The position numbers and the translations under genes were made by a program. A DNA stretch of 64,000 nucleotides from Mesonia phycicola (GTDB lineage: Bacteria; Bacteroidota; Bacteroidia; Flavobacteriales; Flavobacteriaceae), in assembly GCF_900141885.1 (NCBI RefSeq), contig NZ_FQYY01000009.1:1-64000 (forward strand). The letters run 5' to 3'. This document shows, piece by piece, positions 5,796-55,173 of the stretch; the first letter of the stretch is position 1, and each line of letters begins with the position of its first letter. Below the pieces are notes generated by a model. That model had not been told where the DNA came from. It did no database searches and saw only the letters and a program-made list of their open reading frames with translations.

Positions 5796-6458
5796 CTACG
5801 TACGTGTAACCACTTTATATAAAATGATATACGGTATGATTTCAAGAGTGCAAAGGTACAAAATAAAATAAAACCAATGACCAAAAACTAGCTTTTGGTT
5901 TTGAGAATAATATTTAAATAAAATACCAATATTAGCTAACAGCCATATAGAAAGGAAAATATAGATTAAAAATGAAGAATTTGGCCAGCCATAAATAAGT
6001 ACTAATAAGAGAGGAGAAATTATAATGGCTACCAGGTTTCTATAAGTTATTTTGTAAAATATATAATTGTCTAAAAGTTTACTTATTTCAAAAACTTCTC
6101 CAATTATTTTCTCTATTAAATACTTTGCTCCAATTAAAACGTTATAACCTAATAATATTTGAATATAGAATAAATAAGGTTCATTTTTAATAGTTATAAA
6201 AGAAGTTAATTTAATAAAATAGAAAATACCTAATGATATAATTAAACCTTGTGCTACAAATAGAAAAAAACTAAATAGATTAAGTACAGAAATGGTTCTT
6301 TTATGTGAAGTGAAATATTTATTAGAAACTAAAACTCTAGAAAAATCTAAAAAATCTTCACTAAATTTTTTTTTAGTAAAAGCAAGCAGGAGTAAGATAG
6401 CCATTAAAACAATGGTCATCCAATCATTAGAAGAAAAAGAACGAGCTACAGCCTCCAA
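5796..6458 (-). CDS. DUF4271 family membrane protein
   Basis: A 220-residue polytopic membrane protein with about six hydrophobic segments, rich in Ile, Leu and Phe. The likely start is a TTG at 6458 giving MEAVARSFSSNDW; the first in-frame ATG is at residue 16 (6413) and would remove the conserved N-terminal stretch. DUF4271 proteins are specific to Bacteroidetes and have no assigned function. It forms a two-gene unit with hemD. A -7 box at 6475-6482 would give a very short leader. Confidence 0.8.
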   Translation of the reverse strand: MEAVARSFSSNDWMTIVLMAILLLLAFTKKKFSEDFLDFSRVLVSNKYFTSHKRTISVLNLFSFFLFVAQGLIISLGIFYFIKLTSFITIKNEPYLFYIQILLGYNVLIGAKYLIEKIIGEVFEISKLLDNYIFYKITYRNLVAIIISPLLLVLIYGWPNSSFLIYIFLSIWLLANIGILFKYYSQNQKLVFGHWFYFILYLCTLEIIPYIILYKVVTRT

Positions 6459-6474
6459 ATTTTTTTATTTTATG

Positions 6475-6482
6475 CAAATTTA
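6475..6482 (-). promoter_or_regulatory. Putative -7 promoter element (DUF4271-hemD)
   Basis: Read on the minus strand this is TAAATTTG, a match to TAnnTTTG. It is 16 bp upstream of the TTG start at 6458 and 46 bp from a divergent -7 box at 6529-6536. Confidence 0.5.
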
Positions 6483-6528
6483 AAATTAAATAGCTAGAAA
6501 ATCTGAAATAAGAGAGTTTAAAAATAAT

Positions 6529-6536
6529 TACATTTG
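6529..6536 (+). promoter_or_regulatory. Putative -7 promoter element (glycosyltransferase operon)
   Basis: TACATTTG matches TAnnTTTG. The proposed ATG at 6552 lies only 15 bp further on, implying a nearly leaderless transcript. The in-frame TTG at 6534 overlaps the box and is rejected as a start. Confidence 0.55.
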
Positions 6537-6551
6537 TCTAAAATTGCACCC

Positions 6552-7280
6552 ATGTCGAGGCGACTCGTTGTTATACCAACTTATAATGAAATAGAAAATA
6601 TAGAGCGTATTTTACGCAACGTGTTTTCTCAAAGGGCGTCTTTTGATGTATTGGTGGTAGATGATAATTCACCAGACCATACTTCAGAGAAGGTAAGAGA
6701 ACTACAAAAAGAGTTTTCAAATCAATTATTTCTAGAAGTAAGAACGCAAAAGTCAGGCTTAGGTACCGCTTATATTCACGGATTTAAGTGGGCTTTAGAG
6801 AGAGATTATGAATTTATTTTTGAAATGGATGCAGATTTTTCTCATAACCCTAACGACTTAATTAGACTCTATAATGCTTGTGTAAAACAAGACGCAGCAT
6901 TAGCAATTGGTAGTAGATACGTTACCGGGGTTAATGTGGTAAATTGGCCAATGAATAGAGTATTAATGTCTTATTTTGCTTCTAAATATGTAAAGTTTAT
7001 TACAAGAATGCAAATACAAGATACAACGGCAGGGTTTGTGTGTTACAGAAGAGAGGTTTTAGAAAAAATAAATCTAAACTCTATTCAATTTGTAGGTTAT
7101 GCTTTTCAAATAGAAATGAAGTTTAAAGCTTACCTCTTAAAATTTAAAATTGTAGAAGTTCCTGTTATTTTTACAGACAGAACAAAAGGTGAATCTAAAT
7201 TAAGCGGAAATATAATTTCTGAAGCAGTATTTGGAGTGATTAAAATGAAATTAAAAAGTTTATTTGGCAAAGAAATATGA
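6552..7280 (+). CDS. Polyprenol-phosphate mannosyltransferase-like GT2
   Basis: A 242-residue family-2 glycosyltransferase of the Dpm1 type, expected to move a sugar from a nucleotide sugar to polyprenyl phosphate at the inner face of the cytoplasmic membrane. Visible motifs are IPTYNE at the N-terminus, VVDDNSPDHT (nucleotide binding) and the metal-binding DADFSHNP in the middle. There are no C-terminal transmembrane helices, so it is the short soluble form. The ATG at 6552 is preferred over an in-frame TTG at 6534. It overlaps the dihydroorotase gene by four bases (ATGA). Confidence 0.88.
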   Translation: MSRRLVVIPTYNEIENIERILRNVFSQRASFDVLVVDDNSPDHTSEKVRELQKEFSNQLFLEVRTQKSGLGTAYIHGFKWALERDYEFIFEMDADFSHNPNDLIRLYNACVKQDAALAIGSRYVTGVNVVNWPMNRVLMSYFASKYVKFITRMQIQDTTAGFVCYRREVLEKINLNSIQFVGYAFQIEMKFKAYLLKFKIVEVPVIFTDRTKGESKLSGNIISEAVFGVIKMKLKSLFGKEI

Positions 7281-8617
7281 AAAAGATTTTAATTAAAAAT
7301 GCTAATATCGTTAACGAAGGAAAAGTTTTTGAAGGCGATGTATATATTGAAGATGACCTTATTGTAGAAGTTGCAGATATTATTAGTGCAAAATCTCATG
7401 ATGTTCAAGTTTTTGATGCAGAGGGTAAATACTTATTGCCAGGCGTGATAGATGATCAGGTTCACTTTAGAGAACCAGGTTTAACGCATAAAGAAGATAT
7501 TGAGCACGGTTCTAAAGCAGCAATTGCAGGTGGTATTACTAGTTTTATAGAAATGCCTAATACAGTGCCGCAAACAACCACTATAGAAAAGTTAGAAGAG
7601 AAATTTGCTATGGCAGCAGAGAAAGCATACGCAAATTATTCTTTTATGTTTGGTGGTACCAATGACAACTTAGAAGAAATAAAAAAAGTAGATCCAAAAT
7701 CTACCGCTGCCTTAAAATTATTTTTAGGTTCTTCTACTGGTAATATGTTAGTAGATGATGAAAAAGTTTTAGAGCAAATCTTTACACACTCTCCATTAAT
7801 TGTAGTGGCTCATTGTGAAGATGAAACAACTATTAAAAACAATTTAGCCAAGTATAAAGAAGAGTTTGGTGATGATATTCCAATTGTGTATCACCCAGAA
7901 ATTAGAAGTGAAGAGGCTTGTTACATATCTTCTTCTAGAGCAGTAGCATTAGCAAAAAAAACGGGTGCTAGATTACACGTTTTCCACCTTTCTACAGCAA
8001 AAGAATTAGAGCTATTTACCAACAAAATACCACTAAAAGAGAAGAAAATTACAGCAGAAGTATGCATTCATCACCTATGGTTTAATAATGAACAGTATGA
8101 TGAAAAAGGAACATTGATAAAATGGAACCCTGCAGTAAAAACTAAAAAAGATCAAGACGCTTTATTAAAAGCATTAATAGAAGATAAGCTAGATGTAATA
8201 GCAACAGATCACGCGCCTCATACTAAAGAAGAAAAAGATAATGTTTATACTAAAGCACCAAGTGGAGGGCCTTTAGTACAACACGCTTTACCAGCAATGC
8301 TTGAGTTTTATCATAAAGGTAAAATAACTCTAGAAAAGATTGTAGAAAAAATGTGTCACAACCCTGCTATTTTATTTGAAATAGAAAAGAGAGGTTATAT
8401 TAAAGAGGGCTACAAAGCAGATTTAGTTTTAGTAGATTTAAATGCCCCTTGGACAGTAAATAAAGATAATATCTTATACAAATGTGGGTGGTCTCCTTTT
8501 GAAAAAACTACCTTTAGATCTAGAATTACGCATACATTTGTGAACGGAAAATTAGTATATAAAAACTTTAAAGTATTAGACGTTAAAAATGCAGAGCGTT
8601 TAACATTTAATAGATAA
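7277..8617 (+). CDS. pyrC: Dihydroorotase
   Basis: A 446-residue amidohydrolase of the long (type I) form, converting carbamoyl aspartate to dihydroorotate in pyrimidine synthesis. The N-terminal metal motif reads DDQVHFREPG (about residues 59-68): the first His of the usual HxH pair is Gln61. The expected carboxylated Lys lies in LKLFLG, and DHAPHTKEE is present near residue 313. Gln at that position is, to my recollection, common in Bacteroidetes homologues. Translationally coupled by ATGA overlap to the upstream glycosyltransferase and abutting the DUF4296 gene. Confidence 0.9.
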   Translation: MKKILIKNANIVNEGKVFEGDVYIEDDLIVEVADIISAKSHDVQVFDAEGKYLLPGVIDDQVHFREPGLTHKEDIEHGSKAAIAGGITSFIEMPNTVPQTTTIEKLEEKFAMAAEKAYANYSFMFGGTNDNLEEIKKVDPKSTAALKLFLGSSTGNMLVDDEKVLEQIFTHSPLIVVAHCEDETTIKNNLAKYKEEFGDDIPIVYHPEIRSEEACYISSSRAVALAKKTGARLHVFHLSTAKELELFTNKIPLKEKKITAEVCIHHLWFNNEQYDEKGTLIKWNPAVKTKKDQDALLKALIEDKLDVIATDHAPHTKEEKDNVYTKAPSGGPLVQHALPAMLEFYHKGKITLEKIVEKMCHNPAILFEIEKRGYIKEGYKADLVLVDLNAPWTVNKDNILYKCGWSPFEKTTFRSRITHTFVNGKLVYKNFKVLDVKNAERLTFNR

Positions 8618-9105
8618 TGAAAAAAAAGTTTACCAACATATTCGCCATTTTATTTTTAGGTCTAGTTTTATCTTGTCAAAGTGTAGATAAGCAGGAGAAG
8701 CCTGAAAACTTAATACCTGAAGATAAAATGGTAGATTTGTTAACAGATTTATTAAGATTAGATGCTGCAGAAAACTATTCTTCTATTGAGTTTAAAAAAA
8801 GAAAAATAAATACCAAAGATTTAATTTTTGAAACTTATAAGGTAGATAGTTTGCAATTTGTAGAAAGTAGCCGCTACTATGCAGAAGATTTTAAAGTAAA
8901 TAAAAGAATTTACGATAGCGTGCAAACCAGATTTGAAGAAGAAAAAAAGTATTTTGATTCTTTAGTGAAAGTAGATACTCAACAAAAAGCAGACGAAAAG
9001 AATAAAGATAATCTAACTATAAAACCAATTACAGAAACGTCTGATGTAAAAGAAAAAAAGTTGCAACTAACAACTAGTAAAGACTCTATTAAATCTAAAC
9101 CTTAG
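8617..9105 (+). CDS. DUF4296 lipoprotein
   Basis: A 162-residue putative lipoprotein with a lipobox ending at LVLSC (Cys20), then a small domain containing LIPEDKMVDLLTDLLRLDAAE, typical of DUF4296, and a charged Lys/Asp/Glu-rich C-terminal tail. Its start overlaps the last base of the dihydroorotase gene, so it is the third gene of that operon; the association with pyrC is common in flavobacteria. Function unknown. Its end overlaps the convergent SDR gene by 11 bp. Confidence 0.83.
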   Translation: MKKKFTNIFAILFLGLVLSCQSVDKQEKPENLIPEDKMVDLLTDLLRLDAAENYSSIEFKKRKINTKDLIFETYKVDSLQFVESSRYYAEDFKVNKRIYDSVQTRFEEEKKYFDSLVKVDTQQKADEKNKDNLTIKPITETSDVKEKKLQLTTSKDSIKSKP

Positions 9106-10108
9106 TTTTTATAAAATATCTTGAAGTTTCTTTTATAGATTGTTGAATTGGTGTAAACTCAAAATCTAATAGTTTCACTATTTTTTTATTGCTGTAGTAA
9201 GATTTTCCAAAAGCACCTTTAATAGATTTTTTTGTAATTATTTGCTCTGTGTTAAATAATTTTCTGCCTATATATTGAAATAACCATCCAATAAAAACCA
9301 TCCAAGGTTGTAATTTTTTTCTTGGTTCTGGTTTTTTTAAAGCTTTAGCAATTTCTGCTAACACTATTTTAAAAGAAAGATTTTCTGCAACCAAAACAAA
9401 CCCTTCATTTTCTATATTACTCTGCATAAGTAAAACCATAGATTTTGCTACATCTTCTACAGCAACAAAACCAGTAGTTAAAGGTGGGTAATAAGACAAC
9501 CCATTATGTACTTTGCTAAATAACTGTCCGCTCCCACTAGACCAGTTACCAGCGCCAATAATAACACCTGGGTTTACCACCACGACATTTAAGCCTTCTT
9601 GAGAGGCTCTCCAAACTTCCATTTCTGCACCATATTTAGTAATAGAATAATTGTCATGCTCTGCATCATTATTACGAGGAGATTTTTCTGTAATAGGTTG
9701 ATGGTTTAACTCACTACCAAGAGCAGCAATAGAGCTAACGTGGCAAAGTTTTTTTACTCTTTTGCTTAAAGCTAAATTAACCACATTGGCGGTACCTTCA
9801 ATATTAATTTTTCTTAGAAGTTTGTAGTGTTTAGGGTTGTAAGAAATTAGTCCAGCACAATGATAAACATATTCAATATCTACAAAAGCATCGGTAAGTT
9901 GAGGTATGTTGGTAATGTCTGCAAGAAACCATTCTATATTTTCAAGCAGTTTAATAGAATTTTCTCCTATTTTTTGTTGAATAATATATTCTGCGGCCTT
10001 TATTTTTTCATGAGTTCTGTACAGCGCCCTCACTTTTTCTTCTCGTAGAAGTAATTCTGCCAATAAATGAGATCCAACTAAACCGGTAGCTCCTGTAACT
10101 AAAATCAT
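9095..10108 (-). CDS. NAD-dependent epimerase/dehydratase family protein
   Basis: A 337-residue extended short-chain dehydrogenase. The NAD-binding GATGLVGSHL lies at residues 5-14 and the catalytic Tyr-Lys pair in YSITKYGAE near residue 153. The C-terminal substrate domain has a hydrophobic stretch (WMVFIGWLFQYIG) seen in dihydroflavonol-reductase-like members. The substrate cannot be read from sequence. It overlaps the end of the DUF4296 gene by 11 bp in convergent orientation. Confidence 0.85.
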   Translation of the reverse strand: MILVTGATGLVGSHLLAELLLREEKVRALYRTHEKIKAAEYIIQQKIGENSIKLLENIEWFLADITNIPQLTDAFVDIEYVYHCAGLISYNPKHYKLLRKINIEGTANVVNLALSKRVKKLCHVSSIAALGSELNHQPITEKSPRNNDAEHDNYSITKYGAEMEVWRASQEGLNVVVVNPGVIIGAGNWSSGSGQLFSKVHNGLSYYPPLTTGFVAVEDVAKSMVLLMQSNIENEGFVLVAENLSFKIVLAEIAKALKKPEPRKKLQPWMVFIGWLFQYIGRKLFNTEQIITKKSIKGAFGKSYYSNKKIVKLLDFEFTPIQQSIKETSRYFIKTKV

Positions 10109-25735: not shown

Positions 25736-26803
25736 ATGGTTAAAACAGATATATTAATTATAGGAGCTGGGCCAACTGGTCTATTTACTGTTTTTGAAGC
25801 AGGATTACTAAAATTAAAATGTCACTTGATAGATGCTTTACCACAACCGGGAGGGCAATGTTCAGAGTTATATCCTAAAAAACCAATTTACGATATTCCT
25901 GGTTTTCCAGAAGTATTAGCGGGTGATTTGGTAGACAACTTAATGGAACAAATAAAATCTTTTGAACCAGGATTTACCTTAGGAGAAAGAGCAGAAACTA
26001 TAGACAAACAAGAAGATGGTAGTTTTATAGTAACCACAAATAAAGGTACACAGCACCACGCTAAAGTTGTTGCTATTGCTGGTGGTTTGGGTAGTTTTGA
26101 GCCTAGAAAACCACCTATTCCTAATATTGCTAATTTTGAAGATAAAGGTGTGGCTTATATGGTGAAAGATCCAGAGGTCTACAGAAATAAAAAAGTAGTG
26201 ATAGCTGGTGGTGGAGACTCTGCATTAGATTGGAGCATATTTTTAGCAGATGTAGCTTCAGAAGTAACTTTGGTGCATAGAAGAAATGAATTTAGAGGTG
26301 CCCTAGATTCTGTAGATAGAGTAAAAGAATTGAAAGATTTAGGAAAAATAAATTTAATTACTCCTGCAGAAATTAGCGAAGTTAGAGGCAATGATAATGG
26401 TGATTTAGAAGCGGTTCTTATAAGAAAAAATAATGAAGCTTCAGAAGAAATACTTTTAGAAGTAGATCATTTTATTCCATTATTTGGTCTTTCTCCAAAA
26501 CTAGGTCCAATTGCTAATTGGGGGTTAGAAATAGAGAAAAACGCCATTAAAGTAGATAATACATTAGATTACCAAACTAATATTCCAGGTGTTTATGCCA
26601 TTGGTGACGTAAATACTTATCCGGGTAAATTAAAACTTATTCTTTGTGGTTTTCATGAAGCAACACTAATGTGTCAAAGTGCTTTTCAGAGAATTTTTCC
26701 AGATAAAAAATATGTAATGAAATATACTACCGTTGGAGGGGTAACTGGTTTTGATGGTACAAAAAAAGAAGCTCCAAAAGCAGTTGTAAAAGCAATAGAT
26801 TAA
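25736..26803 (+). CDS. Ferredoxin-NADP reductase, thioredoxin-reductase type
   Basis: A 355-residue FAD protein. The N-terminal FAD motif GAGPTG lies at 10-15, the NADPH motif GGGDSALDW near residue 160, and the C-terminal FAD motif GVYAIGDV near 284. The redox CxxC of thioredoxin reductase is absent between the domains, which fits the FNR2 group. It is 44 bp upstream of a 2Fe-2S ferredoxin gene that is its likely partner. Confidence 0.9.
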   Translation: MVKTDILIIGAGPTGLFTVFEAGLLKLKCHLIDALPQPGGQCSELYPKKPIYDIPGFPEVLAGDLVDNLMEQIKSFEPGFTLGERAETIDKQEDGSFIVTTNKGTQHHAKVVAIAGGLGSFEPRKPPIPNIANFEDKGVAYMVKDPEVYRNKKVVIAGGGDSALDWSIFLADVASEVTLVHRRNEFRGALDSVDRVKELKDLGKINLITPAEISEVRGNDNGDLEAVLIRKNNEASEEILLEVDHFIPLFGLSPKLGPIANWGLEIEKNAIKVDNTLDYQTNIPGVYAIGDVNTYPGKLKLILCGFHEATLMCQSAFQRIFPDKKYVMKYTTVGGVTGFDGTKKEAPKAVVKAID

Positions 26804-26847
26804 AATAGATTAGTAGAGTTAAAATAGTTAACTCTCACTTTTTAACT

Positions 26848-27180
26848 ATGGAAGAAGACGTAAAGATTACAATTATAGATAGAGAAGGGGTAGCTCATGA
26901 AGTAGATGCTCCTACAGACATGAATATGAATTTAATGGAGATTGTAAGATCTTATGAGCTGGCTCCAGAAGGTACTGTTGGTATTTGTGGCGGTATGGCA
27001 ATGTGCGCCTCTTGCCAGTGTTACGTGTTAAGTGACACTCCATTAACAGAAATGCAAGATGACGAAGAAGCTATGTTAGCTGAAGCCTTTCATGTAGAAG
27101 ATAATAGTAGGTTAGGTTGCCAAATACCAATTACTAAAGATTTAGAAGGACTTAAAGTGCAACTAGCTCCAGAAGAGTAG
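26848..27180 (+). CDS. 2Fe-2S ferredoxin, adrenodoxin type
   Basis: A 110-residue ferredoxin with cluster ligands Cys47, Cys53, Cys56 and Cys91 (spacing x5, x2, x34), plus an extra Cys58. The adrenodoxin-type spacing and acidic C-terminal half fit electron transfer for Fe-S assembly or oxygenases. Ends the block that starts with mrp; followed by a strong terminator. Confidence 0.92.
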   Translation: MEEDVKITIIDREGVAHEVDAPTDMNMNLMEIVRSYELAPEGTVGICGGMAMCASCQCYVLSDTPLTEMQDDEEAMLAEAFHVEDNSRLGCQIPITKDLEGLKVQLAPEE

Positions 27181-27202
27181 GCCATATTTAAGTTTTAATT
27201 AT

Positions 27203-27237
27203 AAAAAAAGCCTTATCTGTTTGATAAGGCTTTTTTG
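27203..27237. terminator. Bidirectional terminator
   Basis: AAAGCCTTATC / GATAAGGCTTT with a TGTTT loop and A/T runs on both sides, between the convergent ferredoxin and outer-membrane protein genes. Confidence 0.88.
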
Positions 27238-27256
27238 TGACTTAATATTTTCTGTG

Positions 27257-28303
27257 TTAGAAAGAATATTGTGTGCCTAAATTAAGCGTATATTTTTGCT
27301 TTAACTGAATACCATTTGGTTCTTGGTAAGCAGGTAAAACCATTTCTGCTCCAAATCTTAATCCTTTTAAAGTGTTTTTAGTGAAATAGTAGTTTGCGCC
27401 AAGGGCATAATTTAGTTGTAAGCCTCCAAAATTATCTGGATTAGCAGTGGTAACCATAGTTCTATTTAGATCTGGGTTACTTCCATCAATTTCTTCTGCA
27501 AATTTAGCTTCTGCTCTTACAGAAAAACTAAAGAAATCTGTAGCATCCATAGCTAACCAAGAGGTGGCTAAATACTGATTGCCTAATCTATAATTATTAT
27601 CATTTTCATTTAAAAAGAATTTAGTATTTGCTTGAGCACCCCCAGAAAGTTTTTCTGCTTGCCACAAATATGTCATTCCTATTTTAGTAGAAAATGAACC
27701 AGAACCTATTTGCATAGGGTAAGGTAAAATAACATCATTGCCGTTAGACATTGGCGTAACATCTTCTTGCTCTATAGAGCCTGTAGGTAAACCAAAACCT
27801 ATTTCTCCGTGTAATTCTTGTTGGTTTTTGTTCCATAATTGAAAAAGTGCTGCAACATACACATCTCCAAACCCGCTAGAACTTGTAGAAAAATCTGTAT
27901 CCATAGCCATACCCATATCATCTGTCATACGCATTTTTAAATCCATGTCATTGGTGGTGTAATTAGCCATTGCCATAAACGTTAATTTATCTGTAGGGGC
28001 GTACATCAATCCTAACATATGCATTCCCATTGTCATCGTTTGTGGGGCAATCATGTAATTTTGATATACAAAATCTTCACTTACATCTTTGTCTTGATAG
28101 CGTAAATCTTTCATTTGCATAGTCATATATCTATAAGAAACCATAAACTCTCCTTTATGGTGAGTGTGATCTCCCATAACTCCAATTGGAGCGTGACTAC
28201 TAGCACGGTTAGATACCCAAAGCTCTTCGGTTGTATGGTCTTCTTGAGCTGTTACTTGCTGTAAGCTTAGTAAAACTAAAGCAAGTTTTATTATATTCTT
28301 CAT
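27257..28303 (-). CDS. Met/His-rich outer-membrane beta-barrel protein
   Basis: A 348-residue secreted protein with a signal peptide (cleavage near QVTAQ, residue 20) and alternating hydrophobic strands ending in LNLGTQYSF, a typical barrel C-terminus. It resembles the MetA-pathway/transporter-like barrels of Bacteroidetes. The N-terminal 120 residues are remarkably rich in Met and His (MGDHTHHKGEF, YRYMTMQMKDL, TMTMGMHMLGLMY, TDDMGMAMD), a composition associated with copper or silver contact. It is the last gene of a three-gene unit with a CNGKC membrane protein and a DUF3050 protein. A metal-related role is inference. Confidence 0.75.
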   Translation of the reverse strand: MKNIIKLALVLLSLQQVTAQEDHTTEELWVSNRASSHAPIGVMGDHTHHKGEFMVSYRYMTMQMKDLRYQDKDVSEDFVYQNYMIAPQTMTMGMHMLGLMYAPTDKLTFMAMANYTTNDMDLKMRMTDDMGMAMDTDFSTSSSGFGDVYVAALFQLWNKNQQELHGEIGFGLPTGSIEQEDVTPMSNGNDVILPYPMQIGSGSFSTKIGMTYLWQAEKLSGGAQANTKFFLNENDNNYRLGNQYLATSWLAMDATDFFSFSVRAEAKFAEEIDGSNPDLNRTMVTTANPDNFGGLQLNYALGANYYFTKNTLKGLRFGAEMVLPAYQEPNGIQLKQKYTLNLGTQYSF

Positions 28304-28373
28304 ATTTAAAATTTATTGTTTGTGTAATTTTTTAGCTGCGGAAGTCTCTTCAGCAATAATGTGTGATATTTAC

Positions 28374-28751
28374 TTATGAAGCTTTAGGTGGATGAAAAGG
28401 AATATTTTTTTTCAGAAATGAATAGTTGTTGAGGTAATTATAAAAACTTCTAGTTTTGGTTATAGATATTATAGGGTTTTTTATAGCTGTAATTTCAATA
28501 AAACCAATAGGGTAATTCTCTAACTGAATTTGTTGGGTAGTATTTGTTTTTTTAGAATCGCTTTTGTTGCTTTTTAATTGTTTTATTAAATAACATTTAC
28601 CGTTGCAATTTAAAGAAGGCTTGTCTTTATTTACACAAAGTGTTTCTACAATATAATTGTAATTAAAACAGTACTCCAAAATAGGTTCTACTGGCTTTAG
28701 CATGGCAATTAAATACAACGCCGTAAATGTTATGGAAGTAAATTTAGGCAA
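28374..28751 (-). CDS. Small CNGKC-motif protein, uncharacterised flavobacterial type
   Basis: A 125-residue protein with an N-terminal hydrophobic helix (about 5-25), then EYCFNYNYIVETLC and the motif NCNGKCYLIKQL (Cys49, Cys53), a polar linker and a C-terminus ending IPFHPPKAS. Proteins with a CNGKCxLxKxL motif recur in flavobacteria; I know no experimental function. Four Cys (28, 39, 49, 53) could bind a metal or form disulfides outside the membrane. Its start overlaps the end of the DUF3050 gene by 8 bp, implying translational coupling. Confidence 0.75.
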   Translation of the reverse strand: MPKFTSITFTALYLIAMLKPVEPILEYCFNYNYIVETLCVNKDKPSLNCNGKCYLIKQLKSNKSDSKKTNTTQQIQLENYPIGFIEITAIKNPIISITKTRSFYNYLNNYSFLKKNIPFHPPKAS

Positions 28752-29526
28752 CTACTTTAGCTTCTTTTATTTCTTTTTCTATGCCATCCCACAAAATAAT
28801 TCTTTTTTCTAGAGATTGTTTAGAGACTTCTTCTACTTCTTTCCATTTGTCTTGGTTGTTACCACATAACTCTTCAATCATTTGTAAAGCCATTGGTCCG
28901 TGCTCATCTTCATCTAATTCAATATGTCTATCAAAGTAATATTTAAATAGAGTAAGATTTTCTTCAGGAAATTGCTGCTGAATTTTTTCTATGATAGAAT
29001 TGAACATAGCAGGTATTAAATTTTCTCTACCAAAAGTAAACGCTGCTGCTATTTTATGAGGTTGATTAGAATAAACCACTTCAAAAGTAAATTTTAAAAA
29101 CTTTTTTACACTAATTGGTAAGTTAGATGAAGCAATAATAAGGTAAATGTCTGTACCGTGTTTTATTTGCTCCATAAATTTAGAAATAGACGTTAGGCTA
29201 GCTCCACTTTTTTGCATAGCATCTAAGTACATTTCATAATGGCTTTGTCTTTTACCTTCAAGGTTTATATCTGTTTCTTCTGCCAATACAATCTCGTTAA
29301 TCAAGTAACGTACTTCTGGATTACCAACAGGATACCAAGGGAAACTTGTATTGGTTAATTTACTTTGTAATGCTTTTAATAGAGACATAAAATCCCACAC
29401 AGCAAAAACATGATGCTCCATAAAAATTTGTAAATCTTTAGGGGTCTGTATTAAATCATATAAAGTGTGATTTAATAATTGATTACGTAAATCTTCTGTA
29501 GCGTGTTCTATGTGGTCTATGTTCAT
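28744..29526 (-). CDS. DUF3050 protein, heme-oxygenase-like fold predicted
   Basis: A 260-residue all-helical soluble protein matching the DUF3050 family in pattern: MEHHVFAVWDFMSLLKALQ (36-54), NEIVLAEETD (77-86), SHYEMYLDAM (95-104) and DRHIELDEDEHGPMA (199-213). Repeated Glu/His positions (E78, E83, E84, H96, E98, H201, E208, H209) are placed as in TenA/heme-oxygenase-like diiron proteins, so a metal-dependent oxygenase is possible but untested. It leads the operon with the CNGKC protein and the Met-rich barrel. A -7 box lies 16 bp upstream of the start. Confidence 0.8.
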   Translation of the reverse strand: MNIDHIEHATEDLRNQLLNHTLYDLIQTPKDLQIFMEHHVFAVWDFMSLLKALQSKLTNTSFPWYPVGNPEVRYLINEIVLAEETDINLEGKRQSHYEMYLDAMQKSGASLTSISKFMEQIKHGTDIYLIIASSNLPISVKKFLKFTFEVVYSNQPHKIAAAFTFGRENLIPAMFNSIIEKIQQQFPEENLTLFKYYFDRHIELDEDEHGPMALQMIEELCGNNQDKWKEVEEVSKQSLEKRIILWDGIEKEIKEAKVVA

Positions 29527-29541
29527 ATAAAAAATTTTCTA

Positions 29542-29549
29542 CAAAAATA
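29542..29549 (-). promoter_or_regulatory. Putative -7 promoter element (DUF3050 operon)
   Basis: The minus strand reads TATTTTTG, 16 bp before the start at 29526, giving a very short leader. Confidence 0.55.
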
Positions 29550-29712
29550 AGGTGCGATTATTGTTTATTAAAATAGTAGAGCAATTTAAATGATTTTTTT
29601 ATAGAAGAAATAAAGCTGAAAAAATTAAAAAATGATAATAACCTCCATACTTATCTTTTATTCACCTTTACAACTACAAAATTTACAAAGGAAGACTGGT
29701 GAAAAAAATACA

Positions 29713-29799
29713 ATGAAACTGAAAAAGAAATGCTGCCAGAAATATCTAAAAAAAGGCAATCGTTGTAAACGTTGCCCTTGTTATGATTTGCTTTCTTGA
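29713..29799 (+). CDS. 28-residue Cys-rich microprotein
   Basis: A short reading frame from ATG 29713 to TGA 29797-29799, translating to MKLKKKCCQKYLKKGNRC followed by KRCPCYDLLS. Five Cys fall in the order CC-x9-C-x2-C-x-C and 9 of 28 residues are Lys or Arg. Small flavobacterial proteins with a CCxKYxKKGxxCKxCP signature exist to my recollection, which is the main reason to call this a gene. The frame is open to an upstream ATG at 29632 (55 residues), but that extension looks non-coding. It may bind Zn or Fe-S, or touch nucleic acid. The rest of the 343-bp gap 29527-29869 is AT-rich and shows nothing else. Confidence 0.6.
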   Translation: MKLKKKCCQKYLKKGNRCKRCPCYDLLS

Positions 29800-29869
29800 T
29801 CTAACACGATAAAGCGCTTAGAAGTTTTTTTATAAAATACATCAACCTCTCACTCTACTTTTATTGTTA

Positions 29870-31045
29870 CTATTTAAAAGCAGCAATGCCTGTAATGTCC
29901 ATTCCGGTAATTAGCAAGTGAATATCGTGTGTACCTTCATAAGTAATTACACTTTCTAAATTCATCATATGTCTCATAATACTGTACTCACCTGTAATTC
30001 CCATTCCGCCTAAAATCTGCCTTGCTTCACGAGCAATTTTTATAGCCATATCTACATTATTTCTTTTAGCCATAGAAATTTGAGCAGTAGTAGCTTTGCC
30101 TTCATTTTTTAATTGCCCAAGACGCAGTGCTAATAATTGAGCTTTGGTGATTTCAGTGATCATTTCAGCTAATTTTTTCTGCTGAAGTTGATATCCTGCA
30201 ATAGGTTTATCAAACTGAATACGTTCTTTTGCGTAGCGTAATGCCGTATCGTAGCAATCCATAGCAGCGCCAATAGCTCCCCAAGCAATACCAAATCTAG
30301 CAGAGTCAAGACAACCAAGAGGTGCACCTAAACCGCTCTTGTTAGGTAATAGGTTTTCCTTCGGAATTTTCACATCGTTAAAAATCAATTCTCCGGTAGC
30401 AGAAGCACGAAGAGACCATTTGTTGTGTGTTTCTGGAGTAGTAAATCCTTCCATCCCACGTTCAACAATAAGTCCGTGTATTCTGCCTTCTTCATTTTTT
30501 GCCCAAACTACAGCAATGTCTGCGAAAGGAGCGTTAGAAATCCACATTTTTGCACCATTTAATAAATAATGGTCTCCTTTATCTTTAAAATTGGTAAGCA
30601 TTCCGCCAGGGTTAGAGCCATAATCTGGTTCTGTTAAACCAAAGCACCCCATAAATTCTCCACTAGCTAATTTAGGTAGGTATTTTTTGCGTTGCTCTTC
30701 GCTACCATATTTCCAGATGGGATACATTACTAAAGAAGATTGAACTGAAGCTGTAGAGCGCACGCCGCTATCTCCTCTTTCAATTTCTTGCATGATTAAT
30801 CCGTAAGAGATTTGATCTAGTCCCGCTCCGCCATATTCTTCAGGGATGTAAGGTCCAAAAGCGCCAATTTCTGCTAAACCTTTTACAATAGATTTAGGAA
30901 ATTCTGCTTTTTGAGCAGCATCTTCAATAATAGGAGAAACTTCCCGTTTTACCCAATCGCGAGCAGCATCACGAACCATTTTATGTTCGTCAGATAATAA
31001 ATCGTCTATATTATAATAATCTGGAGCTTGGAATAAATCTGCCAT
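29870..31045 (-). CDS. Acyl-CoA dehydrogenase, glutaryl-CoA dehydrogenase-like
   Basis: A 391-residue FAD enzyme. Motifs are CFGLTEPDYGSNPGGM (FAD/substrate loop, about residues 133-150), KMWISNAP, RIQFDKPIAGYQLQQKKLA and the catalytic Glu in VITYEGTHDIHLLI near residue 370. RSTASVQSSLVMYPI near residue 95 is characteristic of glutaryl-CoA dehydrogenases, which turn glutaryl-CoA into crotonyl-CoA in lysine and tryptophan breakdown. Its link with the saccharopine dehydrogenase at 1445 is functional, not positional. The gene stands alone. Confidence 0.88.
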   Translation of the reverse strand: MADLFQAPDYYNIDDLLSDEHKMVRDAARDWVKREVSPIIEDAAQKAEFPKSIVKGLAEIGAFGPYIPEEYGGAGLDQISYGLIMQEIERGDSGVRSTASVQSSLVMYPIWKYGSEEQRKKYLPKLASGEFMGCFGLTEPDYGSNPGGMLTNFKDKGDHYLLNGAKMWISNAPFADIAVVWAKNEEGRIHGLIVERGMEGFTTPETHNKWSLRASATGELIFNDVKIPKENLLPNKSGLGAPLGCLDSARFGIAWGAIGAAMDCYDTALRYAKERIQFDKPIAGYQLQQKKLAEMITEITKAQLLALRLGQLKNEGKATTAQISMAKRNNVDMAIKIAREARQILGGMGITGEYSIMRHMMNLESVITYEGTHDIHLLITGMDITGIAAFK

Positions 31046-43964: not shown

Positions 43965-45947
43965 TTAGGGCTTCACTACCTTAAAAGCCCATTGAATTCT
44001 TACTGCGTTTAAAATAGCTAATAAAGCAACTCCTACATCTGCAAAAACAGCACTCCACATAGTTACAATACCTAGTGTTCCTAAAATTAAAACCATTAGT
44101 TTTATGCCTAGTGCTAACACAATATTTTGCCAAATTATTTTTCGAGTAGCACGGCTTATTTCAATAGCTTTAATCACTTTTGAAGGCTGATCTGTTTGTA
44201 TAACCACATCTGCTGTTTCAATAGCTACATCACTACCCAATCCACCCATAGCAATTCCTATATCACTTAATGCTAAAACGGGAGCGTCATTGATACCATC
44301 TCCCATAAATGCCACTTTAATATCTGGATCTTGTTTCCAATTTTCTACTTCTTTAAGTTTATCTTCTGGTAACAAACCACCTTTTGCCTTTTGTATATTT
44401 AATTTTTTTGCGATGTGCTGGGTGATAGAATCTTTATCGCCAGAAAGCATCATTATATTTTTAATGCCTAGTTTTTGTAACTCTATTATCATTTGCGTAG
44501 CGTCTTCTTTTAGCTCATCTGCAATAACAACATAACCTACAAATGCATTATTAATTGCTATTAAAATGACAGTTTCTACAATCTTATTAATTTCTTTAGG
44601 AAATTTAATGTGATGCGCAGTCATTAAAGCTTTATTTCCTGCTAAAACTATTTTGTTATTTACTTTACCTTTTAAACCTTTACCTGCAATTTCTACTACT
44701 TCTTTTGCTTCATAATTGGTTTTAACGCCTTTATGCTCTAAAATTGCTTTAGCAATAGGGTGTGTAGATTGCGCTTCTAAGGCAGTTAAGTAAGCTATCA
44801 TTTCATCTTCACTACTTAATTCAGGATTATTAGGGTTAGTGACAATTTTTTTAATTTTAAAAACCCCTTTAGTAACAGTTCCTGTTTTATCTAATACTAA
44901 GCTGTTAATTTTTGCCATTGCTTCTAGGTATGAAGCACCTTTAAATAAAATTCCGTTTTTTGAGGCAGCACCTAATCCGCCAAAGTAACCTAACGGAATA
45001 GAGATAACCAATGCACAGGGACAGGAGATAACTAAGAAAATTAAAGCACGATAAAACCAAATATTAAACACATAATTATCTACTATAAAATAAGGCAATA
45101 AAATTACGCTAATAGCTAAAATTACTACAATAGGTGTATAAATACGAGCAAATTTTCTGATGAATAATTCGGTTTTAGATTTTCTTGCGGTAGCATTTTG
45201 TACCAAATCCAAAATTCTAGCGATAGAACTATCTTGAAATCTTTTTGTGGTTTCAATTTCAATTACATTTTCTAAATTAATACTTCCAGCAAAAACTTTT
45301 TTGTCTTTTATTACTGAAGTAGGTTTGCTTTCTCCTGTTAAAGCAGCTGTATTTAAGGTTGCTTTTTTAGATAACAAAATACCATCTAAAGGAATTTTCT
45401 CTCCTACACGAACCTGTATTTTTTCTCCTATTTCTACCTCTTTCGAAGAAACATTTTTTAAAACACCAGCACGAAATACATTGGCTTGTTTTGGTTGTAC
45501 TTCTAGCAATGCTTTAATATTACCTTTTGCTTTTTTTACTGCTGCGTGCTGAAATAACTCTCCAATAGTATAAAATAACATTACCGCTACACCTTCTGGA
45601 TATTCACCTATTAAAAAAGCACCAATAGTAGCAATAGACATTAAAAAGAATTCTGTAAAAATGTCTCCTTTACGTATGTTTTTCCATCCAGATTTAAGAA
45701 CTGGAAGCCCTACAGGAAGATATGCAAGTAAATACCAAGTGATTCTTATTTCTTCAGGAAAATTTAAAGAACTAAAATGATCATTAAGTAAGCCAAGTAT
45801 TAGCATTAAAAAACTAATGGCAGGCCATACATATGGTGAAGTTTTATGTTTTATAGGCTTAGGTTGATCACAACCACAACAACCCGTAGTATCTTGAGAT
45901 TGCTTCGATTTTTGAGTGGAAGCACAAGTGTTTTTAGTGTTTTTCAT
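43965..45947 (-). CDS. Heavy-metal P-type ATPase (Zn/Cd/Co type)
   Basis: A 660-residue inner-membrane P1B-type pump. Transmembrane motif CPC at about 309-311 (SCPCALVIS), phosphorylated Asp near 353 in DKTGTVTKG, the HP locus in THPIAKAILEHKG and the hinge MGDGINDAP. There is no N-terminal HMA domain; instead the first 35 residues are rich in Cys and His (TCAST, TGCCGCDQPKP), a possible metal-loading tail. The frame extends to 46016, overlapping the regulator gene, but ATG 45947 (MKNTKNT) is the better start. Zn/Cd efflux under the adjacent Fur-family regulator is inferred. Confidence 0.9.
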   Translation of the reverse strand: MKNTKNTCASTQKSKQSQDTTGCCGCDQPKPIKHKTSPYVWPAISFLMLILGLLNDHFSSLNFPEEIRITWYLLAYLPVGLPVLKSGWKNIRKGDIFTEFFLMSIATIGAFLIGEYPEGVAVMLFYTIGELFQHAAVKKAKGNIKALLEVQPKQANVFRAGVLKNVSSKEVEIGEKIQVRVGEKIPLDGILLSKKATLNTAALTGESKPTSVIKDKKVFAGSINLENVIEIETTKRFQDSSIARILDLVQNATARKSKTELFIRKFARIYTPIVVILAISVILLPYFIVDNYVFNIWFYRALIFLVISCPCALVISIPLGYFGGLGAASKNGILFKGASYLEAMAKINSLVLDKTGTVTKGVFKIKKIVTNPNNPELSSEDEMIAYLTALEAQSTHPIAKAILEHKGVKTNYEAKEVVEIAGKGLKGKVNNKIVLAGNKALMTAHHIKFPKEINKIVETVILIAINNAFVGYVVIADELKEDATQMIIELQKLGIKNIMMLSGDKDSITQHIAKKLNIQKAKGGLLPEDKLKEVENWKQDPDIKVAFMGDGINDAPVLALSDIGIAMGGLGSDVAIETADVVIQTDQPSKVIKAIEISRATRKIIWQNIVLALGIKLMVLILGTLGIVTMWSAVFADVGVALLAILNAVRIQWAFKVVKP

Positions 45948-45993
45948 ACTTGCAAGTAAACAAAAGTAAACGTGCAATGGAAGTGCATTTATT

Positions 45994-46410
45994 TTAGGTT
46001 TGTGTGCATTGGTCACAGATACCTTTAACCACTAAGTTGACGTTTTCTGCTAAAAAACCATCTGGTAATTTTAATTGAGGAATTTTATGGTCTGTAAGAC
46101 AAATGGTTTCATTACAATTATTACAATGAAAATGTAAGTGTAAATCGTTTTCTATATTACAATTACATCCGGTTTTGCAGAGTGCATATTTTAAAACGCC
46201 TGTGCCATCGTCTATTTGATGCACTAAACTCCCTTCTTCAAAAGTTTTAAGGGTTCTGTATAAAGTAGTTCTATCAATTTTAGAAAATGTATTTTCTATA
46301 TCGGTTAGAGTAACAGCAGTTTTATGTTTTTCCATATGCCGATATATAAGTGTGCGCATTGCTGTAGGACGAATGTTTTTGCTTTTTAATACTTCTTCTA
46401 TATCTTTCAT
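45994..46410 (-). CDS. Fur-family metal-responsive regulator (Zur-like)
   Basis: A 138-residue winged-helix repressor of the Fur family. DNA-binding part: RPTAMRTLIYRHMEKH and DRTTLYRTLKTFEEGSLVH (about 50-70). Metal site: HLHFHCNNCNETICL near 95-109 with a C-terminal CDQC; an additional Cys group CKTGCNCN near 78-85 is unusual. It is 46 bp upstream of the metal ATPase gene on the same strand and probably controls it in response to zinc; direct proof is lacking. Between the genes are two AAGTAAAC copies 10 bp apart, enclosed by TTGCA/TGCAA. Confidence 0.85.
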   Translation of the reverse strand: MKDIEEVLKSKNIRPTAMRTLIYRHMEKHKTAVTLTDIENTFSKIDRTTLYRTLKTFEEGSLVHQIDDGTGVLKYALCKTGCNCNIENDLHLHFHCNNCNETICLTDHKIPQLKLPDGFLAENVNLVVKGICDQCTQT

Positions 46411-53733: not shown

Positions 53734-55173
53734 TTAACTATTACTAGTAGTATGTGTATGCGTATGTGTTTGAGAATGGGAATGTGGTGTATTTATTAAG
53801 GTATAATCAAACTTAAATTTACTAGCCTTGTGGTGATCTGCCAAAGCGTAATGCTCTAAAAGAGTTTTAGGTCCATCTTGATTAATCATAAAAGCAAATA
53901 TACCGTAATCGCCTCCGTTATCTGTTGTAGGATTGTTTGGAATACGAGTAATTGTGTGTACGTGATTATAGTCTGCAATGGTAGAAGAGTTAGCTCCAGT
54001 AGAACCTTCTGTATTAAACTCTGCCCACAAGTATGGATTGTAAATTCTGTAGTAAAACTCTGATGTAGCTGTTGGGTTAGAGCCAGAGTCATTAATCCAT
54101 ACAAAATAAGTATCATCTATATTATTCATAATATCTGTCCACCATACATCTGCAAAAGTACCTGTTAGGTTATATACATATTCTTTCATCACTAAAATTA
54201 AATTAGCTTGAGCAGTTGCAGACATATCAGAATATTTTAAACCGGTTGCAAATCCAGAGTAGTCGTACGTACCTCTGTATGGGTCTGGGTCTCCGTTCAT
54301 ATCTGCTGGACCTACTTCTAAAGAATGTGAGGTAGAGGTAGAAGAAGCACTGGCTAATTCTGTTGCGTCTAAGCTGTTATAAAGGGTAAGTGCTAAATCT
54401 CTTTCATCAGAAAAAATATCAAAATCTTCTCCGTTGTAAGTATCTGCTGCAGGTTCTCCTCCTAAAAATGCAGGAACAATAGACACATTATCCCCGTGTA
54501 CTAAAAAGTTGATAGCGCAATGGTGACCGTCTAATTGAAAGCCCCAAGAACCACTTGTTTCTGGATCTCCAAACATATCTATAGAGTAAAATTCTGGATT
54601 CCAGGTATCACTCATAACTTCACTTAACCAACCTTCAGAAAGTTCTGTTATTTCATAAACTTTTTGGTAACCATCTGCACTTAAAAATAGTTGTAAAATA
54701 TCTTTAAAAGCAACTAATTGCTCATCAGATAAATCGCCATAAGTTATACCATCTCTGTTGCTATTGTTAGCAGGAGTGTTGTGCCAAAGGTAAAAACGCT
54801 CATCATCTAAGCATACAGAAGCTTCCTCTAATAAAGTGCTAGATAAAGAACTTCTAAAATCTACCATAGCTTCTCTCATCGTTTCAATTTCTGTGTCTGT
54901 AGATTGGCTTTCTTCACCATCTGTGTTACAGGCAGTAGTAGAGGCACTACCATCATCATTATCATCAGAATCACTGTCGTTAGATACATAACCATCAGGT
55001 TGATCGCAGGCAGAAATACTTACATCTGGATCTCCCAAGCCATCATCATCAGCATCGGCATACCAAATGGTTTCTGTACAGCTAGAATCTGAGCTGCTGT
55101 CATCATCACTACAAGAATAGATAAGAATTGTTGAGGTCATTAAAAGTAAACCTCTAAATGCAATTTTTTTCAT
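53734..55173 (-). CDS. DUF3500 lipoprotein with calcium-like repeat and His-rich tail
   Basis: A 479-residue lipoprotein (lipobox IYSC, Cys21). An Asp-rich segment (about 22-75: WYADADDDGLGDPDVS, NDSDSDDNDD) resembles thrombospondin type-3/calcium-binding repeats. The main domain (about 95-445) matches DUF3500: LWHNTPANNSNRDG, SWGFQLDGHHCAINFLV and YGIFAFMINQDGPKTL. The C-terminus is HSHSQTHTHTHTTSNS, seven His in 16 residues, suggesting metal binding. DUF3500 has no established function. A 21-bp-spaced repeat upstream and a LytTR pair next door suggest regulation by that pair. Confidence 0.8.
   Translation of the reverse strand: MKKIAFRGLLLMTSTILIYSCSDDDSSSDSSCTETIWYADADDDGLGDPDVSISACDQPDGYVSNDSDSDDNDDGSASTTACNTDGEESQSTDTEIETMREAMVDFRSSLSSTLLEEASVCLDDERFYLWHNTPANNSNRDGITYGDLSDEQLVAFKDILQLFLSADGYQKVYEITELSEGWLSEVMSDTWNPEFYSIDMFGDPETSGSWGFQLDGHHCAINFLVHGDNVSIVPAFLGGEPAADTYNGEDFDIFSDERDLALTLYNSLDATELASASSTSTSHSLEVGPADMNGDPDPYRGTYDYSGFATGLKYSDMSATAQANLILVMKEYVYNLTGTFADVWWTDIMNNIDDTYFVWINDSGSNPTATSEFYYRIYNPYLWAEFNTEGSTGANSSTIADYNHVHTITRIPNNPTTDNGGDYGIFAFMINQDGPKTLLEHYALADHHKASKFKFDYTLINTPHSHSQTHTHTHTTSNS

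What the first reader, a model, noticed from the sequence alone, without database searches (positions are those of the whole stretch)
27257..29526. Unexplained operon: DUF3050 protein, CNGKC membrane protein and Met/His-rich outer-membrane barrel
Three minus-strand genes, the first two overlapping by 8 bp and the third 70 bp on, pair a helical DUF3050 protein with Glu/His positions like diiron oxygenases, a small protein with a conserved CNGKC core, and an outer-membrane protein whose N-terminal part is crowded with Met and His. Neither of the first two families has a known function. The combination reads like a metal-handling or metal-dependent oxidation pathway from cytosol to outer membrane, copper being the obvious guess.
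Basis: partly seen in the sequence, partly recalled or inferred. Interest (0 to 1): 0.75.

Follow-up and report, generated by a model that had tools for sequence, protein, structure and literature searches.

The report
Copper-sensing leader gene for outer-membrane channel
The small middle gene looks like a copper-sensing "leader" whose own translation switches a methionine-rich outer-membrane channel gene behind it on or off, while the iron-enzyme gene in front appears to be only a neighbour.

Summary
The three genes are real and correctly placed, but are probably not one pathway. (1) DUF3050 is a heme-oxygenase-like diiron-type protein: six expected metal ligands are invariant in 32 homologs and the fold matches solved HamA (9VWB), CADD and UndA. 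CNGKC occurs as often in family genomes without DUF3050 (97 of 159) as with it (54 of 90). (2) The "CNGKC" protein heads copper genes across Bacteroidota. In 239 distinct homologs it has C-x9-C-x-G-x-C (238), then 63-74 drifting residues, then Pro-Pro just before the stop (237 within the last 13 residues). The next gene is on the same strand in 130 of 131 cases: mostly a TonB receptor (many OprC-like), MbnP-MbnH, a YtkA-like lipoprotein, or this barrel. The leader's end pairs with the start region of the next gene more than swapped partners do (p about 1e-10, replicated), though not in every locus. This is the anatomy of CutF/CruR copper-responsive nascent-chain leaders. (3) The barrel resembles the COG4313 channel and has 12 conserved Met on one face of three strands; 22 of 24 close homologs sit behind a CNGKC leader. 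Best reading: a copper-controlled leader plus channel. Copper binding, ribosome pausing and transport are inferred, not shown.

The parts
28374..28751 (-). CNGKC leader ORF, 125 aa, TTG start overlapping the DUF3050 stop by 8 bp; N-terminal hydrophobic segment
   Evidence: 239 distinct homologs by an N-terminal-only HMM
28593..28607 (-). CNGKC motif (residues 49-53), with a further conserved Cys39 (28635-28637) ten residues before it
   Evidence: extra Cys at -10 in 238 of 239
28386..28391 (-). Pro-Pro codons (residues 121-122), preceded by His, followed by three residues and the stop; proposed pause site
28369..28381 (-). 5' arm of a predicted stem: last codons, stop and first bases after the leader
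   Evidence: window: -8.3 kcal/mol, true partner at rank 0.178; modest
28298..28310 (-). 3' arm of the same stem, covering the ATG of the barrel gene
27257..28303 (-). outer-membrane beta-barrel gene (PF13557; closest solved fold COG4313 channel 4RL8)
27944..28144 (-). Met-rich strands of the barrel (residues 54-120): M54, 60, 62, 64, 90, 92, 94, 96, 100, 110, 112, 120 conserved in at least 80% of 25 homologs, all on one face
28744..29526 (-). DUF3050 heme-oxygenase-like diiron-type protein; ligands E84, H96, E168, H201, D205, H209
29870..31045 (-). acyl-CoA dehydrogenase upstream; recurrent neighbour of DUF3050 and of some CNGKC leaders (context)
25736..27180 (+). pyridine-nucleotide-disulphide reductase and [2Fe-2S] ferredoxin, convergent; recurrent neighbours of DUF3050 (context, possible electron donors)

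Best explanation
The functional unit is CNGKC plus barrel. CNGKC is a copper-responsive leader (upstream ORF) of the CutF/CruR type. While it is being made and inserted into the membrane, its three cysteines (C-x9-C-x-G-x-C) test for copper; Pro-Pro just before the stop makes the ribosome pause there. A paused ribosome covers the 5' arm of a stem that otherwise hides the start of the next gene, so pausing turns the barrel on; Cu(I) binding changes the pause. By analogy with CruR, and because the usual cargo looks like copper import (OprC-like receptor, MbnP-MbnH), I expect ON when copper is scarce and OFF when it is plentiful; the opposite sign (as in CutF) is not excluded. The barrel is a COG4313-like channel with a methionine face suited to Cu(I). 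DUF3050 next door is a diiron-type enzyme on its own; in this genus the leader start overlaps its stop, so coupling and a shared transcript are likely but not shown. Shown: sequence motifs, conservation, gene order, excess RNA pairing, predicted folds. Inferred: copper binding, pausing, sign of control, transport.
For: Pro-Pro in the last 12 residues in 126 of 128 leaders against 5 of 691 other ORFs of the same loci; 237 of 239 within the last 13 when homologs are gathered by an N-terminal-only HMM; the residue before PP is H, R, K, Q or P in 231 of 238. Motif-to-PP spacing 67.5, sd 2.1, range 63-74. Next gene same strand in 130 of 131 leaders with a next gene in the stretch: TonB receptor 47, MbnP 31 (29 followed by a CCP_MauG/MbnH-like gene), barrel 28, YtkA-like 11. 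43 of 59 distinct receptors (first or second gene) carry C-x3-M-D-P, the OprC-type copper motif, against 0 of 305 other neighbours (motif function from PMC8610252, passages). In 108 further leaders: PP in the last 12 in 107, same cargo classes. Leader end pairs with the next start: true partners -9.16 against -6.30 kcal/mol for swapped ones, p 1e-10, n=102; mean rank 0.25 against 0.49 for 170 control gene pairs; repeated n=97, p 2.5e-9. Barrel: 22 of 24 close homologs within 1.5 kb of a leader. CutF and CruR use a Cys motif plus a C-terminal Pro motif upstream of copper genes.
Against: No experiment: copper binding, arrest and regulation are untested. The pairing is a tendency, not a rule: the true partner is in the best 5% in 30 of 102 loci and worse than the median in 19; ordinary gene pairs also reach the best 5% in 13% and their true partners average -8.3 kcal/mol. 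In the window it is modest (rank 0.178); in the genus L034 (0.545) and L036 (0.98) show none, and three cassettes with a 290-nt gap were outside the tested range. Fold z-scores of gaps differ only moderately from control gaps (-2.19 against -1.51, p 0.0015). No match to DUF2946 was found. 16 of 59 receptors in the first set and 11 of 28 in the second lack the C-x3-MDP motif. One leader (L084) has no PP although a barrel gene follows. CutF's own Pro end did not act as a strong arrest sequence in fusions (PMC9973294). Barrel copper transport rests on Met conservation and context alone.
Confidence: 0.74

Rival explanations
1. CNGKC is a working periplasmic or membrane-anchored copper chaperone that hands Cu(I) to the product of the next gene; Pro-Pro is a structural tail.
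For: Three conserved Cys and a hydrophobic N-terminus (234 of 239); copper gene neighbours.
Against: The half between motif and PP drifts while PP and its distance from the motif stay nearly fixed; cargo varies while the leader stays first; RNA pairing ties the leader's end to the next start in many loci. A chaperone needs none of this.
Confidence: 0.15
2. CNGKC acts by Rho-dependent termination as in CruR, not by unmasking a start site; same sensor, different read-out (a sub-version of the best explanation).
For: CruR precedent with TonB cargo (PMC9426467); long gaps in some loci (290 nt in three cassettes); no pairing in L034 and L036.
Against: The excess pairing of leader end with next start is unexplained by it; most gaps are short (medians 78, 101 and 107 nt for barrel, MbnP and receptor cargo).
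Confidence: 0.3
3. One reading: DUF3050, CNGKC and barrel form one metal-dependent oxidation or metal-handling pathway.
For: Cassette in 8 of 16 genus members, with the 8-bp overlap in five of eight as called; HamA, a DUF3050 protein, is encoded in the cluster of fragin, described in its abstract as a metallophore (listing).
Against: CNGKC is in 54 of 90 genomes with DUF3050 and 97 of 159 without; adjacent within 2 kb in 2 of 90. DUF3050 lies away from CNGKC in 4 of 12 genus members that have it. CNGKC-barrel occurs in genomes without DUF3050 (G262; G044, G019, G072), three of these still close to the ferredoxin gene, so shared chromosomal position may be enough to explain the cassette.
Confidence: 0.07

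Closest known systems
CutF of Rhodobacter capsulatus and the wider 'CutF-like' set (PMC9973294)
   Same: small exported protein, CxxxC motif, C-terminal Pro-rich end, first gene before a copper gene, stem shielding the next start; the CutF-like set includes many Bacteroidota (19% raw, 40% normalised)
   Different: extra Cys at -10 and C-x-G-x-C core, motif-to-PP distance about 67 rather than 45 residues, partly different cargo; sequence homology to CutF not tested; whether this family is one of their 29 clusters could not be checked (supplements not readable here)
CruR / DUF2946 of Bordetella (PMC9426467)
   Same: Cys copper sensor plus C-terminal arrest-like motif at fixed spacing; heads operons of TonB receptor, PepSY_TM, MbnPH, Sco
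   Different: CXXC and RAPP instead of CxGxC and mostly [HRKQ]PP; no Pfam match to DUF2946; Rho mechanism there, start-site masking suggested here
HamA / MgoB / CADD / UndA (heme-oxygenase-like diiron proteins)
   Same: DUF3050 family (HamA 9VWB, MgoB), heme-oxygenase-like fold, E-x11-H ... E ... H-x3-D-x3-H ligands
   Different: no NRPS or N-oxygenase genes seen among the window's ORFs; sits with acyl-CoA dehydrogenase and ferredoxin
COG4313 outer-membrane channel (4RL8) / PF13557
   Same: best structural match and Pfam family of the barrel
   Different: conserved Met face and copper context; I did not read the 4RL8 paper, so that these are absent there is an assumption

Membership tests
CutF-like copper-responsive leaders (criteria of PMC9973294) | under 150 aa, PP within the last 15 residues | tested here: met
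   125 aa; PP followed by 3 residues; 237 of 239 homologs within 13 residues
CutF-like copper-responsive leaders (criteria of PMC9973294) | N-terminal signal or hydrophobic segment | tested here: met
   hydrophobic 15-mer in 234 of 239; no signal-peptide predictor was run
CutF-like copper-responsive leaders (criteria of PMC9973294) | Cys-based metal motif | tested here: met
   C-x9-C-x-G-x-C
CutF-like copper-responsive leaders (criteria of PMC9973294) | downstream gene on same strand within 1000 nt, of copper homeostasis | tested here: met
   130 of 131 same strand; OprC-like receptors, MbnP-MbnH, PepSY_TM; for this barrel the copper role itself is inferred
CutF-like copper-responsive leaders (criteria of PMC9973294) | stem masking the next start (CutF itself) | tested here: inconclusive
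   excess over the family, modest in the window, absent in L034 and L036
CutF-like copper-responsive leaders (criteria of PMC9973294) | copper-dependent pausing and control of the next gene | not testable with these tools
   needs experiment
DUF2946 (PF11162, CruR) | Pfam match | tested here: not met
   0 of 20 members match; none in own genome
Heme-oxygenase-like diiron oxidases (DUF3050 branch) | PF11251 match and heme-oxygenase-like fold | tested here: met
   3e-102; 9VWB TM 0.85, CADD, UndA
Heme-oxygenase-like diiron oxidases (DUF3050 branch) | 3 His + 3 carboxylate ligands | tested here: met
   E84, H96, E168, H201, D205, H209 invariant in 32; spacing as CADD; distances in the model not measured
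Heme-oxygenase-like diiron oxidases (DUF3050 branch) | bound metals and O2 chemistry | not testable with these tools
   needs protein
COG4313/PF13557 outer-membrane channels | fold and Pfam match | tested here: met
   (4RL8 E 6e-17, 17% identity)
   54 of 90 against 97 of 159 genomes; within 2 kb in 2 of 90

The most novel reading that the evidence does not exclude
A Bacteroidota-wide family of nascent-chain copper sensors, without a Pfam or NCBIfam model in our scans, reads periplasmic copper: at about 67 residues from the pause site its three cysteines would just have left the translocon. The paused ribosome unmasks the start of interchangeable copper genes, one of which is a new kind of outer-membrane copper channel with a methionine face and no TonB.
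Probability: 0.5. Interest if true: 0.78.

Novelty: new variant of a known kind. Interest (0 to 1): 0.62.

Why it matters
Copper control in Bacteroidota is, to my knowledge, little described. If right, a gene found in 151 of 249 sampled family genomes and 116 of 296 sampled phylum genomes is a regulator hidden as a hypothetical protein. It points to copper genes by position alone, adds a further sequence type beside CutF and CruR, and makes a Met-rich barrel a candidate ion channel for copper. It also replaces a tempting three-gene story for DUF3050.

Tried and rejected
Rejected: the single-pathway reading (co-occurrence counts). Rejected: CNGKC as a DUF2946 member. Considered and left open: DUF3050 as a pABA-synthase-like (CADD) or fragin-type enzyme; HamA's reaction was not found in the passages read. 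DUF3050 with the ferredoxin as electron donor: Fer2 lies within 10 kb in 17 of 49 genomes for which both places were listed (the Fer2 list was cut), suggestive only. Which face of the barrel the Met residues point to (lumen or lipid) could not be decided: the two faces did not differ consistently in polarity. The PDB sequence search with the barrel gave only weak hits, E 0.67 or worse. A search for the literal word CNGKC found one spider-venom review; the searches listed no paper on such leaders in Bacteroidota apart from the Bacteroidota share of the CutF-like list in PMC9973294. Papers seen only as passages or first part and not leaned on: PMC13185094 (outline and part 1 of 6), PMC13108848, PMC12914433, PMC13232832 (passages).

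Limits and drops: only part of the first-look candidates per genome was scored (17, 14 and 8 at most), so their tallies are lower bounds; searches scored all or up to 55. Dropped before counts: exact duplicate leaders; for pairing tests, gaps outside 48-260 nt; in the Fer2 comparison, second DUF3050 copies of G014, G016, G071 and G079 and the fragments of G161 and G185. The 108 further leaders come from related taxa; those were found by a C[ND]GKC pattern, so their motif is by selection, PP is not. The L045 barrel (20% identity) lacks the Met pattern but was kept in the 28 and in alignment A3.
Full report
WHAT IS THERE. The three ORFs exist as described. The genome has 3.28 Mb in 43 contigs; the closest named relatives by the CNGKC protein are Mesonia mobilis and M. 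oceanica (67-68% identity), and both carry the same cassette with the acyl-CoA dehydrogenase, ferredoxin and reductase around it. So the window is most likely Mesonia (inference). The cassette DUF3050-CNGKC-barrel is present in 8 of the 16 genus genomes; DUF3050 is in 12 of 16, a close barrel homolog in 9 of 16.

DUF3050. Pfam gives DUF3050 and, weakly, Haem_oxygenas_2. An AlphaFold model from 32 homologs is confident (pLDDT 93) and matches HamA 9VWB first (TM 0.85), then CADD and, lower, UndA. E84, H96, E168, H201, D205 and H209 are invariant, align with 9VWB and have the E-x11-H and H-x3-D-x3-H spacing of the CADD ligands listed in PMC4520260 (passages). MgoB of the mgo operon is also DUF3050 (PMC3298696, passage). 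HamA is annotated in the fragin/valdiazen cluster and was non-essential for hydroxylamine intermediates (PMC11659414, passages). In Flavobacteriaceae DUF3050 is in 90 of 249 genomes. Of the 29 other loci inspected by eye (L002-L030, about 1.5 kb each side) 14 have the acyl-CoA dehydrogenase next to DUF3050, 5 the ferredoxin in the stretch, and 8 of a second group a gene that reads like methionine aminopeptidase (recalled, not scanned); only L026 had a CNGKC gene within the stretch. CNGKC is found in 54 of the 90 DUF3050 genomes, hence in 97 of the other 159: no association. Within 2 kb the two genes meet in 2 of 90 (G000, G049); in G082 they are about 2.4 kb apart with partial CNGKC and barrel matches. 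I therefore treat DUF3050 as an independent enzyme; ferredoxin and reductase next door are possible electron donors (17 of 49 within 10 kb).

CNGKC: A LEADER, NOT A PATHWAY ENZYME. Aligning 20 diverse homologs left six invariant residues: three Cys, one Gly and, near the very end, Pro-Pro. That recalls CruR, where a CXXC senses copper and a C-terminal RAPP is taken to arrest the ribosome (PMC9426467; first part and passages read), and CutF, with CxxxC and a proline-rich end (PMC9973294; passages and one section read). I tested it. Of 128 distinct leaders 126 have PP in the last 12 residues against 5 of 691 other ORFs of the same loci (list of 132). Gathering homologs with an HMM that stops after the motif, so that PP is not selected for, gives 237 of 239 within the last 13 and 238 within the last 20; the exception is L084. 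The Cys motif is C-x9-C-x-G-x-C in 238 of 239, and the distance from motif to PP is 67.5 (sd 2.1, 63-74) although the residues between drift.

WHAT IT HEADS. The next gene is on the same strand in 130 of 131 leaders that have one in the stretch (L136 is the exception), whereas the upstream gene is on the same strand in 84 and the other in 47 and is mixed in kind. Cargo of 132: TonB receptor 47, MbnP 31 (29 followed by an MbnH-like di-haem peroxidase), barrel 28, YtkA-like lipoprotein 11, small lipoprotein 5, a second leader 4, others 6; six receptors are followed by PepSY_TM. Classes are BLAST clusters; one representative each matched PF20243, PF03150 and PF03929; the YtkA match is below Pfam's cut-off; of six receptors scanned four matched above cut-off, one only below and one not at all. 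Of 59 distinct receptors 43 carry C-x3-M-D-P; none of 305 other neighbours does. In OprC, Cys143 and Met147 of CxxxM bind copper (PMC8610252, passages). A further 108 leaders (loci, exact duplicates removed) gave PP in the last 12 in 107, MbnP 31, receptor 28 (17 with the motif), barrel 23, YtkA-like 12. The same genome has a second leader, followed by a YtkA-like protein and a receptor with ACTDKMDPVT. TonB receptors, PepSY_TM and MbnPH are also listed for CruR.

RNA EVIDENCE. Folding suggested that the leader's last codons pair with the sequence before the next ATG (mean z -2.19 against -1.51 in 120 control gaps, p 0.0015). A direct test swaps partners between loci: true partners -9.16, swapped -6.30 kcal/mol, Wilcoxon p 1e-10, n=102; mean rank of the true partner 0.25, against 0.49 for 170 ordinary gene pairs, whose true partners average -8.3 and reach the best 5% in 13% against 29% for leaders. 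Repeated: n=97, p 2.5e-9, rank 0.28. In the 45 of 102 with rank up to 0.1, the 5' arm centres on the leader's stop codon and the 3' arm on about -20 to -8 before the next ATG, what a ribosome paused at PP would cover and free. In the window the stem pairs 28369-28381 with 28298-28310 and includes the barrel ATG, but it is modest (rank 0.178). In the genus L037 and L038 are strong (0.03), L034 (0.545) and L036 (0.98) show none, and three 290-nt gaps were not tested. Over all loci 19 of 102 are worse than the median.

THE BARREL. The model (pLDDT 83) matches the COG4313 channel 4RL8 first. Twelve Met conserved in at least 80% of 25 homologs lie on the same face of three successive strands; which face is lumenal is undecided. 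Of 24 close homologs (E up to 1e-140) in 249 genomes, 22 are within 1.5 kb of a leader; of nine weaker matches one is. Comparing with the places, two of the 24 (G000, G049) have DUF3050 there. In several loci a small lipoprotein with HDEVMPKM and MM-x-WM motifs follows.

HOW IT MOST LIKELY WORKS. Low copper: the nascent leader pauses at PP, the stem stays open, the barrel is made. High copper: Cu(I) on the three Cys, which at about 67 residues from the pause site would just have crossed the membrane (inference), relieves the pause; the stem closes and the barrel is not made. The sign follows CruR and the import-like cargo; CutF is described as working the other way, so sign confidence is about 0.65. 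Rho-dependent termination may add to or replace unmasking. In five of the eight Mesonia cassettes, as called, the leader's TTG start overlaps the DUF3050 stop by 8 bp, so translational coupling is likely; this explains the look of a three-gene operon without a shared pathway.

NOVELTY. The kind is known (CutF/CruR); the CutF-like list of PMC9973294 already holds many Bacteroidota proteins, and I could not check whether this family is among its clusters. The window protein has no Pfam or NCBIfam family above cut-off, nor do 20 members in Pfam point to one. Its three-Cys core, longer spacing, start-masking statistics and the Met-faced barrel cargo make it, on present evidence, a new variant.

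Noticed in passing
L081:3911-4282 (own genome, contig 26): Second CNGKC leader in the same genome, followed by a YtkA-like lipoprotein and a TonB receptor with the OprC-like ACTDKMDP motif.
   Followed up: yes
L041, L073, L075, L076, L085, L098, L156: Two CNGKC leaders in tandem or close by (in L073, L075 and L098 with the small Met-rich lipoprotein between), as if two leaders control one operon.
   Followed up: no
L060, L066, L068, L070, L084, downstream of the barrel: Small lipoprotein with conserved HDEVMPKM and MM-x-WM motifs, possibly Cu(I)-binding; one member scanned had no Pfam match above cut-off.
   Followed up: partly
L084:3997-4371: A leader ORF without Pro-Pro that is still followed by a barrel gene.
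   Followed up: no
window 25736-31045: Flavobacterial locus between acyl-CoA dehydrogenase and ferredoxin/reductase in which DUF3050 and CNGKC operons seem to come and go independently.
   Followed up: partly
G082 contig 53, about 6150-9378: DUF3050 with partial CNGKC and barrel matches a few kb away; possibly a decayed cassette or a contig-end effect.
   Followed up: no
window 53734-55173: DUF3500 protein with a C-terminal His-rich tail (HSHSQTHTHTHT).
   Followed up: no
window 43965-46410: P-type (E1-E2) ATPase next to a Fur-family regulator.
   Followed up: no
L228, L255: Records titled Rhizobium and Bifidobacterium (metagenome bins) carry this family; probably mislabelled or contaminated bins.
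   Followed up: no
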